In this document: in pieces, positions 54,907 to 57,315 of the stretch
Layout: the number at the start of each line of letters is the position of its first letter
Numbering within the stretch: the stretch's first letter is position 1
Assembly: GCF_003353065.1 (NCBI RefSeq)
Contig: NZ_CP027806.1
Coordinates: forward strand, 3,554,501-3,618,500
DNA: 64,000 bases
DNA from: Cyclonatronum proteinivorum
GTDB lineage: Bacteria > Bacteroidota > Rhodothermia > Balneolales > Cyclonatronaceae
Direction of reading: 5' to 3'
Program-made: the position numbers and the translations under genes
The notes under the pieces: generated by a model
What the model was told of the DNA's origin: nothing
The model's database searches: none
What the model saw: only the letters and a program-made list of their open reading frames with translations

Positions 54907-55123
54907 GTATTATAAGTCTTCGGAAACCAAAGCTGAAATCATCCTGGCGTGTTTCCGCATTCTATTTGATTCGACCGTTTATTTTTTTTGATAGCACTGT
55001 AAGTAAAACCGCGATTGTCCCGAACAACGGGACAGGGTAAGTCGCGATTAAAGGGGCAGCGTTCTTTAAAGCTAGAGGCTTCGGCTATGCCTGCGCTTCG
55101 CTTTGGATGTCAGGATTAAAAAA

Positions 55124-55540
55124 ATCCTGTTCATCCTGTAATCCTAAAAATCCTGTTCAAAATGCAGCGAGGCCGGCAATCTGTAGTACACTTGCCATCA
55201 GGGTTTAGCGCAGCTTTGATGTATCGCATACCGGAGCCCTGTACCGCCAGATCCTTCGACTTCGCTGCGCTTCGCTCAGGATGACACGCTCGCCATGCGT
55301 CAAACGGCGCGGCAGGCCGCGCCGGGTTTTCAGGAAACGCCACTGTCATCCTGAGCGGAGCCTTAGCGCAGCGAAGGCGGAGTCGAAGGATCTCGTATTG
55401 AGGACTGCTATGACCGGCATGATTTCGTGTCCTGTCCCGGCAAAGGAGGTCCCTCACATGAATCCTTCATCAATACCACGGCTAAACAACTATCGGCGGC
55501 TTCGATTTTCCTCCTGCCAAACGATAACGGTTCGGGATGA
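55124..55540 (+). repeat. Long direct repeat, copy R1 (left of the IS110 element)
   Basis: About 417 bases nearly identical to R2 at 56816-57234, sharing TCCTGTTCATCCTGTAATCC at the left and ATAACGGTTCGGGATGA at the right. Inside is an inverted pair of the GATCCTTCGACT...CTCAGGATGACA sequence (55251-55287 and 55346-55393). The IS element begins right after GGGATGA at 55540. No coding function is supported; short frames here are random. Confidence 0.85.
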
Positions 55541-55553
55541 ACTGTATTAAAAG

Positions 55554-56532
55554 TCAAGCGGCCAGCGCCTTTTTTTCATCATAAACTGAATTGGTCATGG
55601 CGACTTCAAACACCTGTCTTACTAATTTATGTGCAACGGCTATCTGAGCAACTTTATGAGGTTTTCCTTTACTTCTTAAACGTTTATACAGGTTACCACA
55701 TGCGGGGTTATAGCGGCTCGCTGAGTAAGCGCACATATACAGCTGTTTTCGCACATAACCAGCCCCCATTTTGCTTATATGACCTTTGCCCTTTACGCTT
55801 GTACCTGACTGATACGGACTTGGCGCAATCCCGATATACGTACTCAGCTGCTGATGACTTTCAAAGCGCGTGAATCCGTCTGTTAAGACACATAACAGGA
55901 TTGCAGTAGCCCTGCCAACACCCGGAATAGTGGAAATTCTTTTGATTAAATCACCGTATTCTTCCTTGGCCAATTCATCCAATTTCCGCTCAACCTTTTT
56001 GAGTGAGTCACGCATGAATGTCAGACTTTGATCATTAATTCTCAGGGCAGCTTCACAGGCCTGCTCATCAAGACTGAAAGCATGGTTTTGATTTTCGACC
56101 TGGTTGATTTGCTTGAGTAGCATCTCCCGAACGGTGTTTAATTGCCGAATAGAGCGCGTATTCACCGGTCTGGGTTTCCACACCTGCAGATCTGCATGCA
56201 TTTTTAGGGCATAATCAGCGATCAGACGCGCATCAACCTGGTCAGTCTTGACCCGACTCATTTTGGCTTTGCAGTAGTTTTTGATCATTAGCGGATTAAC
56301 GACACTAACCTTAATATCCCTGTCGGTCAGAAAGATGGCCAGACCAAGAAAGTACGGACCGGTGGCTTCCATCACCACCCAGCTGTCCGGAGTTACTGCG
56401 TCGGCGAGCTGTTGCCAGCCTGAGGGTTCGTTAGCCGCTTTTTTGACTTTTTTTTGACCCGCTTTGCAGAAATCAAGGGTATCTTTTGAGACATCAACTC
56501 CGAAAAAAATCCATAATATTGTTATTTTTCAT
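55554..56532 (-). pseudogene. IS110-family transposase with frameshift in a T7 run near the start
   Basis: The protein would read MKNNNIMDF, then FGVDVSKDTLDFCKAG, with the first catalytic Asp in GVDVSK, and on through VVMEATGPYFLGLAIFL and KTDQVDARLIADYAL. The C-terminal transposase_20 domain shows STIPGVGRATAILLCVL and TYIGIAPSPYQSGTSVKGKGHISKMGAGYVRKQLY, with the catalytic serine expected there. On the minus strand the ATG at 56532 and the rest are in different frames: seven T occur where six would keep frame, about nine codons in. The downstream frame has no ATG before the first catalytic motif. Either the copy is inactive, slippage at the T-run restores the frame, or the run length is a sequencing error. 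Confidence 0.8.
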
Positions 56533-56549
56533 TTATGGTAATAATCATG

Positions 56550-56700
56550 AGGGACTCCATTAGCATATCCATCATTTATGCTGGCTCGAAGCCTTATGAA
56601 CTGTTCTTGCTTAGTGGAGTAAAGCGCGTTGGTTTCATCCCGAACGAGCTCGAAGCTCAATGACCGAAAGGCAGGGTACCAACGCGCTTTCACCTTCATG
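56550..56700 (-). ncRNA. Predicted IS110 bridge RNA
   Basis: Non-coding end of the element, read on the minus strand as the transposase. First loop: a 13-bp perfect stem (56621-56633 with 56678-56690) encloses TCATCCCGAAC (56635-56645), a GAGCT-CGA-AGCTC hairpin (56646-56658) and ATGACCG (56660-56666). The two outer segments match the insertion site, one complementary and one same-sense. Second loop: a stem ACTCCA/TGGAGT (56554-56559, 56615-56620) plus AGCA/TGCT encloses CATCATTTAT (56570-56579), a GGCT-CGA-AGCC hairpin (56583-56593) and ATGAACTGT (56596-56604), which match the element's own ends. This is the target-loop/donor-loop plan of published IS110 bridge RNAs. RNA ends are approximate. 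Confidence 0.75.
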
Positions 56701-56774
56701 TTTGCGTACAAGTTAAGATTGTTAGATTCTTATCCAAAACAGCTGATCGTTGCCGCTTAACTAATATATGATGA

Positions 56775-57234
56775 CCGGTTCGGGCTTGGGTTGTTTTAGA
56801 AGCCTGTTTGCACAACATCCTGTTCATCCTGTAATCCTACAAATCCTGTTCAAAATGCAGCGAGGCGGGCAATCTGTAGTACACTTGCCATCAGGGTTTA
56901 GCGCAGCTTTGACGTATCGCTTACCGCAGCCCTGTACCGCCGGATCCTTCGACTCCGCTGCGCTTCGCTCAGGATGACACGCTCGCCATGCATCAAACGG
57001 CGCGGCAGGCCGCGCCGGGGGTTGGGGAAAATGCCCCTGTCATCCTGAGCGGAGCCGGAGCGCAGCGTAGGCGGAGTCGAAGGATCTCGTATTGAGGACG
57101 GCTATGACCGGCATGATTCCGTGTCCTGTCCCAACGAAGGAGATCCCTCACATGAATCCTTCATCAATACCGCGGCTAAACAACTATCGGCGGCTTCGAT
57201 TTTCCTCCTGCCAAACGATAACGGTTCGGGATGA
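56775..57234 (+). repeat. Long direct repeat, copy R2 (460-bp tandem unit)
   Basis: Begins CCGGTTCGGGCTTGGG, runs through the part shared with R1 and ends GGTTCGGGATGA. The unit is followed directly by the start of another copy (57235), giving a period of 460 bases. It contains the inverted GATCCTTCGACT/AGTCGAAGGATC pair at 56942-56979 and 57038-57089. Confidence 0.85.
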
Positions 57235-57315
57235 CCGGTTCGGGCTTGGGTTGTTTTAGAAGCCTGTTTGCACAACATCCTGTTCATCCTGTAATCCTAC
57301 AAATCCTGTTCAAAA
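57235..57315 (+). repeat. Long direct repeat, partial third copy R3
   Basis: The first ~81 bases of the R2 unit repeated (CCGGTTCGGGCTTGGG to AATCCTGTTCAAAA), after which similarity stops. The R2/R3 junction contains the uninterrupted target of the IS110 element. A further inverted pair of the GATCCTTCGACT sequence follows at 57359-57403 and 57461-57501. Confidence 0.8.

What the first reader, a model, noticed from the sequence alone, without database searches (positions are those of the whole stretch)
57224..57237. An intact, unoccupied copy of the IS110 target lies 0.5 kb from the insertion
At 57224-57237 the sequence GTTCGGGATGACCG is uninterrupted at the junction of tandem repeat units R2 and R3, while the equivalent R1/R2 junction holds the element. 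This gives exact boundaries and shows GATGA is present once in the empty site and on both sides of the filled one. Since both guides match this repeat, the element may be specialised for a repeat that occurs many times in the genome, as other IS110 elements are for REP sequences.
Basis: partly seen in the sequence, partly recalled or inferred. Interest (0 to 1): 0.7.

Follow-up and report, generated by a model that had tools for sequence, protein, structure and literature searches.

The report
Jumping gene that retargeted its guide
A bacterial jumping gene that appears to find its landing site with a small guide RNA sits in a repeated sequence here, and two near-identical copies elsewhere in the same genome carry altered guides that match a different repeated sequence.

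Summary
GTTCGGGATGACCG at 57224-57237 is the empty form of the site that holds an IS110-type element at 55536-56774; the 14-mer occurs 9 times in the 4.29-Mb genome (reversed control 0). The genome has three full copies of the element. The other two, identical to each other and 98.6% identical to the window copy, sit in a different dispersed repeat (AACCCG-TCAT-CCCGGAAA; 65 blast matches to its unit). Their target guides differ from the window copy's at two positions near the core, in the direction that fits their own target: a natural, small retargeting of a bridge RNA. Over 18 sites in ten guide groups, guides fit their own targets better than swapped ones (summed score 99.3, permuted mean 49.4, 0 of 20,000 as high; own best in 8 of 10). 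In one relative 11 of 11 copies lie at GTCAT-TGCGA repeats. The shared core is better read as CAT/TCAT than as GATGA. This is a new member of the known IS110/bridge-RNA kind; the guide switch between near-identical copies and the tie to GTCAT-headed repeats are the interesting parts. RNA and transposition were not tested.

The parts
57224..57237 (+). intact, unoccupied target (repeat A) at the R2/R3 junction; core GATGA 57230-57234
   Evidence: 9 exact copies in genome
55536..56774 (-). IS110-type insertion sequence, boundaries including both copies of the shared core
   Evidence: junctions against the empty site; three full copies in own genome
55554..56528 (-). transposase frame (DEDD_Tnp_IS110 + Transposase_20); disturbed near its start by two single-base differences from L010/L011 (7-T and 5-A tracts)
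56546..56769 (-). long non-coding leader holding the predicted bridge RNA with two internal loops
   Evidence: folds; alignment and covarying target-loop stem
56660..56666 (-). left target guide CGGTCAT (same letters as the target's top strand)
56635..56645 (-). right target guide GTTCGGGATGA (complement of target TCATCCCGAAC)
56646..56658 (-). hairpin between the two target guides
56678..56689 (-). 5' arm of the stem closing the target loop
   Evidence: covariation
56622..56633 (-). 3' arm of the stem closing the target loop
   Evidence: covariation
56596..56604 (-). left donor guide ACAGTTCAT, equals the right end of the element
56570..56579 (-). right donor guide ATAAATGATG, complement of the left end CATCATATAT at 9 of 10; changes with the left end in relatives
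55121..55535 (+). repeat unit R1, left of the insertion
   Evidence: 94% to R2 over 421 bp
56775..57229 (+). repeat unit R2, between the insertion and the empty site
57230..57315 (+). start of repeat unit R3, identical to the start of R2
   Evidence: 100% over 86 bp

Best explanation
55536-56774 is an IS110-group insertion sequence. Its leader encodes a bridge RNA with a target loop and a donor loop. The left target guide reads one strand and the right target guide the other strand of a short site around a CAT/TCAT core, and the recombinase joins the circular element to that site without a long duplication. 57224-57237 is a matching site still empty. The guides are set to dispersed repeats. 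Two lineages coexist in this genome: A (window copy, target CGG-TCAT-CCCGAAC) and B (L010 = L011, target CCG-TCAT-CCCGGAA). They differ by a one-base indel in the left guide and one substitution in the right guide, and both differences improve the fit to the lineage's own repeat. Shown: sequence, boundaries, guide-target match, number of copies. Inferred: that the RNA is made, that it guides integration, and that guide drift caused the move to a new repeat.
For: Both IS110 Pfam domains in the window frame (PF01548 7.5e-22, PF02371 7.6e-22); the L010 protein matches the ISCro4 (4.4e-31) and IS621 (4.3e-29) recombinases. D27, E69, D111 and D114 are invariant in the four rows of A1 (L010's protein and three relatives; their catalytic role is recalled). 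Leader upstream of the gene, about 13 nt downstream: the IS110-group layout. Contiguous pairs beyond the core: A 5 left + 7 right, B 5 + 6; swapping lowers the score from 11.5 to 7.5 (A guide on B) and from 10.0 to 6.0 (B guide on A). 4 of the 17 A/B differences fall in 23 guide positions of 1239 (p about 2e-4; 0.015 within the more variable leader; windows chosen after seeing the data). Ten guide groups: own-pair sum 99.3, permuted mean 49.4, sd 8.5, 0 of 20,000 as high; own best in 8 of 10. Target-loop stem covaries (28 double-change cells; score 0.607 against 0.272 shuffled, 0 of 500, structure taken from the same alignment). Left end and right donor guide change together (columns 4/218: CG 8, AU 2, GC 1). 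In G245 11 of 11 copies lie at GTCAT-TGCGA(G/A) with one and the same target loop.
Against: No RNA or transposition data. Folding energies alone are weak (z -1.47 and -1.30). No Rfam family reaches its gathering score. The window copy's frame is disturbed near the start, so it may be inactive or moved only in trans. The A/B fit is not perfect: the targets also differ at the seventh base right of the core, where the B guide is unchanged and mismatched, and two more B differences just upstream of the left guide have no clear bearing. Discrimination is limited: the A guide scores 10.0 on the L078 target, and its right guide can pair with B through one G-U. Misfits among relatives: L127 pairs 1 base to the right, L082 2 to the left; groups L082 and L120 fit another group's target as well or better; L125, read by eye, does not fit. 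Only two guide states exist in the full copies of this genome, and L010 and L011 share theirs by descent, so the switch is one event.
Confidence: 0.86

Rival explanations
1. The A and B copies entered the genome separately as already different elements, each with its guide set elsewhere; no retargeting happened in this genome.
For: No match at E 1e-40 in 5 congeners and 5 other family members, drafts of 84-100% completeness, so the history of the element is not visible. Relatives carry many different guides.
Against: A and B are 98.6% identical, so the switch is recent wherever it happened; a decayed 5' fragment (85%) also lies in this genome.
Confidence: 0.35
2. Site choice is by the protein or by DNA shape of palindromic repeats; the guide matches are by-products.
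For: REP targeting also occurs in families other than IS110 (PMC1525189, passages read).
Against: A and B transposases are almost identical yet use different repeats, and the guides track the difference; own guides beat swapped guides in the permutation.
Confidence: 0.05
3. The flanks reflect segmental duplication or homologous recombination between repeats, not separate integrations.
For: R1, R2 and R3 are tandem copies and the genome is rich in repeats.
Against: L010 and L011 have different flanks; their identity runs only 5 and 7 bp beyond the matched stretch. The window flanks join to an exact empty site.
Confidence: 0.04
4. The GATGA on both sides is an ordinary 5-bp target-site duplication from a cut-and-paste transposase.
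For: GATGA flanks the filled site and occurs once in the empty one.
Against: In relatives the element's own ends carry the CAT (right end ACAG(T/A)TCAT; left end CAT followed by C), or by CG in G245, whatever the target, and no 5-bp duplication is constant (its motifs required CAT).
Confidence: 0.03

Closest known systems
IS621 (IS110 group) and its bridge RNA, PMC11208160 (section 6 and passages read)
   Same: Recombinase homology (4.3e-29); guides in the upstream leader, target loop before donor loop, 5' side matching one strand and 3' side the other; short core; integration in dispersed repeats (REP).
   Different: Core CAT/TCAT instead of CT; other repeat families; two guide states between near-identical copies in one genome.
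ISCro4 recombinase (PDB 9t56)
   Same: Closest solved structure by sequence (4.4e-31).
   Different: Its guides and targets were not compared here.
ISEc11 / ISXne4 natural re-direction (IS1111 type), PMC11187229 (passages and section 10 read)
   Same: Related elements whose guide RNA and target changed together in nature.
   Different: There the transposases are 72% identical and the target-matching region is replaced; here the copies are 98.6% identical in DNA, in one genome, and differ by an indel and a substitution in the guides. RNA downstream of the gene in IS1111, upstream here.
REP-targeting IS110 elements ISPpu9, ISPpu10, ISPa11, ISRm19, PMC1525189 (abstract and passages read)
   Same: Every copy counted there in REP sequences (7/7, 7/7, 6/6, 4/4).
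   Different: Different repeats and hosts; guide RNAs unknown at that date.

Membership tests
IS110 family | DEDD_Tnp_IS110 and Transposase_20 domains | tested here: met
IS110 family | Asp/Glu at the four DEDD positions | tested here: met
   D27, E69, D111, D114 invariant in the four rows of A1 (L010 protein and three relatives). In the window copy the frame carrying the first D has no in-frame ATG/GTG/TTG before it. Role of these residues recalled.
IS110 group (not IS1111) | long left end with the RNA upstream of the gene, short right end | tested here: met
   about 240 nt upstream, about 13 nt downstream
bridge RNA | two guides matching opposite strands of the target around the core | tested here: met
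   own against swapped; misfits L127, L082 told in the report
bridge RNA | two guides matching the element's own ends | tested here: met
   (right donor guide 9 of 10 in the window element)
bridge RNA | conserved structure: stem-loops with internal loops | tested here: inconclusive
   target-loop stem covaries; donor-loop outer stem not resolved in the consensus; fold energies near those of shuffles
bridge RNA | match to a curated RNA family | tested here: not met
   no Rfam family reaches its gathering score; whether Rfam 15 holds a bridge-RNA family was not checked, so this is not a defining failure
IS110 family | circular intermediate; recombination activity; RNA bound to protein | not testable with these tools
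   needs bench work

The most novel reading that the evidence does not exclude
A clade of IS110 elements is locked to a CAT/TCAT core and lives on GTCAT-headed dispersed repeats of Bacteroidota and their neighbours. Most of the right guide is fixed ((G/C)TTC-NNN-ATG in nine of the ten guide groups apart from the attC-like one and lineage B); the few free letters drift by single mutations until they match a repeat variant that abounds in the host, so element and repeat families evolve together. This genome catches the step in the act: two near-identical lineages reading two repeat families.
Probability: 0.4. Interest if true: 0.62.

Novelty: new member of a known kind. Interest (0 to 1): 0.46.

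Why it matters
IS110 bridge RNAs are being developed as programmable recombinases, and how their guides evolve in nature is largely open. Two copies 98.6% identical in one genome, each matching its own repeat family, give a natural minimal pair: an indel and a substitution predict which of two sites is preferred. The set of relatives suggests that landing in dispersed repeats is how these elements find many sites, and that few guide letters decide which repeat variant is read.

Tried and rejected
A single-protein scan of genome contigs found no relative; the four-row profile A1 found 34 loci, many of them distant. Rfam gave one sub-threshold match. The plasmid search gave 13 records, all below 60% identity, not followed. 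Fold energy alone did not set the leader apart from shuffles, so the case rests on guide matches and covariation. Papers: a text search for repeat sequences gave three papers that by title are unrelated; searches for IS110 with bridge RNA, REP, guide evolution, seekRNA and target specificity listed no title that reports two guide states between near-identical copies in one genome, but subscription papers are mostly missing and bioRxiv is not held as such. Rejected: a 5-bp duplication and duplication by homologous recombination.

Repeat load, GTCATYNYGAG forward+reverse against the reversed-pattern control: G000 119 vs 12; G245 789 vs 2; G027 30 vs 10; G540 29 vs 9; G541 17 vs 6; G039 32 vs 14; G542 28 vs 14; G024 31 vs 16; G501 42 vs 25; G366 17 vs 21. 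So the excess is strong in two, modest in seven, absent in one.

Rows dropped before the guide test: of 30 rows, 12 were further fetches of the same sites; 18 remained. Loci without the left- and right-end motifs never entered: all of L087-L113, and L116, L123-L126, L129, L130, L132, L133, L135, L136, L138, L139. L116 (fits, 5 positions right) and L125 (does not fit) were read by eye only. Several genome searches score only part of their candidates (40 of 110; 40 of 68; at most 5 a genome), so copy numbers there are lower bounds.

It also said the guides differ at exactly the distinguishing positions; one distinguishing base is not matched, and this is now told.

Full report
Observation. GTTCGGGATGACCG lies at 57224-57237. 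Tandem repeat units flank it: R1 55121-55540 matches R2 56814-57234 at 94% over 421 bp, and the head of R2 (56770-56855) is identical to the head of R3 (57230-57315) over 86 bp. The flanks of the filled site, 59 of 60 on the left and 80 of 80 on the right, match the empty site. In the whole genome the 14-mer occurs 9 times, the reversed control 0. Two of the nine (window, L002) are clearly in the window's repeat family, L001 looks like a diverged member, five (L004-L008) lie in another repeated unit with weak resemblance, and L003 shows none.

The element. 55536-56774 carries, on the minus strand, both IS110 transposase domains; the intact L010 protein is homologous to the ISCro4 and IS621 recombinases. 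The gene is followed by about 13 nt and preceded by a leader of about 240 nt. The leader is predicted to fold into a long stem closing an internal loop with CGGTCAT on one side and GTTCGGGATGA on the other, then a second part with ACAGTTCAT, a short hairpin and ATAAATGATG. The first two match the target on opposite strands; the second two match the right and left ends of the element. This is the order described for IS110 bridge RNAs (PMC11208160, section 6 and passages read; PMC11187229, passages and section 10 read).

Other copies. The genome holds three full copies and one 5' fragment. L010 and L011 are identical to each other and differ from the window copy at 17 positions (14 substitutions, 3 single-base indels). 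Their gene is open for 339 codons. The window copy has two single-base differences near its start, so its main frame begins without a usual start codon there; it may be inactive. L010 and L011 sit at AACCCG-TCAT-CCCGGAAA. This heads a repeat of about 250 bp with inverted ends: 65 blast matches to the unit, 40 of 68 candidates scored, and 46 exact CCGTCATCCCGGA among the 100 sites listed of 101 within one mismatch of CGGTCATCCCGRA (control 4). The joined flanks of both B copies have close empty counterparts (33 of 37 letters). The R query gave no match near them among its 43 listed. So all three full copies are in repeats, but in two different ones.

Guide change. A and B differ in the left target guide (CGGTCAT against C-GTCAT) and in the right guide (GTTCGGG against GTCCGGG); two further substitutions lie just upstream of the left guide. 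The A target reads CGG-TCAT-CCCGAAC and the B target CCG-TCAT-CCCGGAA. The left indel restores the match at the second base before TCAT, and the right substitution at the fifth base after it. At the seventh base the targets differ too, but the B guide is unchanged and mismatched. Scores (Watson-Crick 1, G-U 0.5, contiguous from the core): A guide on A 11.5, on B 7.5; B guide on B 10.0, on A 6.0; A guide on the CCTGAGC target of L078 10.0, so discrimination is not absolute. In the alignment of 11 leaders only the window copy has the extra left-guide base, and only L010 departs from TTC in the right guide outside the attC-like pair, so each lineage seems to carry one derived guide change. Four of 17 differences fall in 23 guide positions of 1239 (p about 2e-4; 0.015 within the leader; windows chosen post hoc).

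Relatives. Profile searches found strong transposase matches in 5 of 244 genomes of the class and 9 of 394 genomes drawn from the phylum, own genome included in both, and 34 loci in genome contigs, among them Aliifodinibius salipaludis, Fodinibius sediminis, a Gracilimonas MAG, an Ignavibacteriota MAG, Frigoriflavimonas and Flavivirga. None of 5 congeners and 5 other family members matches at E 1e-40. For 18 sites in 10 guide groups with recognisable ends, own guide-target scores sum to 99.3 against a permuted mean of 49.4 (sd 8.5, maximum 89.35; 0 of 20,000 as high); own is best in 8 of 10 groups. Misfits: L127, L082 and, by eye, L125. Several right targets read like GTCAT-headed dispersed repeats: CCTGAGCGAAGCG (L078), TGCGAGGAACGAAGCAATC (L083), TCAGAGCGCAGCGAAGAATC (L084). 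In G245 11 of 11 copies are at GTCAT-TGCGA(G/A) with one target loop, and that genome has 789 GTCATYNYGAG against 2 reversed; the excess is strong also in the own genome (119 vs 12), modest in seven others and absent in G366 (17 vs 21). Three sites in two genomes instead sit at TAACGACAT-TGCGC, which looks like an integron attC site (by eye).

Core. Across these sites CAT, mostly TCAT, is common to both element ends and the target (the search motifs required CAT, so this shows that the longer GATGA is not constant, not that CAT is the exact core). GATGA is most simply TCAT plus a coincidental C.

Structure. The target-loop stem and donor hairpin keep 91.6% of cells paired with 28 double changes; covariation score 0.607 against 0.272 in shuffles (0 of 500) and at most 0.231 when slid (the structure came from the consensus of the same alignment). 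RNAalifold also paired the left end with the right donor guide (columns 2-5 with 217-220, one pair with three compensated sequences); I read this as donor-guide covariation rather than an RNA helix.

Judgement. This is an IS110 element with a predicted bridge RNA, a known kind. REP-targeting IS110 elements (PMC1525189, abstract and passages read) and natural re-direction between 72%-identical IS1111 relatives (PMC11187229) are in print. My searches listed nothing that by title reports two guide states between near-identical copies in one genome, each matching its own repeat family, or a clade tied to GTCAT repeats. Expression and activity are untested.

Noticed in passing
L076, L077, L079 (G024, G027; same sites as L080, L081, L086 of Aliifodinibius/Fodinibius): Relatives sit at TAACGACAT-TGCGC(A/T)TAAG with matching guides; GTTAGGC-like motifs around them suggest integron attC sites, reached here by an IS110-group rather than an IS1111-group element. 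attC was judged by eye only.
   Followed up: partly
L123, L129, L132, L135, L138 (G287): Five of five listed copies of another IS110 relative are followed by TTTGTTA, again reminiscent of an attC end; the left flanks end AAACC(A/G)CC.
   Followed up: no
G245 (whole genome): 789 GTCATYNYGAG against 2 for the reversed control: an extreme load of GTCAT repeats in a 3.9-Mb genome.
   Followed up: partly
window 56500-56535: The transposase start of the window copy has a 7-T and a 5-A tract, each one base longer than in L010/L011; frame disturbed, possibly read by slippage or dead.
   Followed up: partly
L012 (G000:C1:3240705-3240819): A decayed 5' fragment of the same element (85%) with a third left-guide variant, near GACAGAG tandem repeats; right part lost.
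   Followed up: partly
G000:C1:3222456-3225002 (L005-L008): Four of the 14-mers lie in a tandem array with a period of about 840-850 bp.
   Followed up: no
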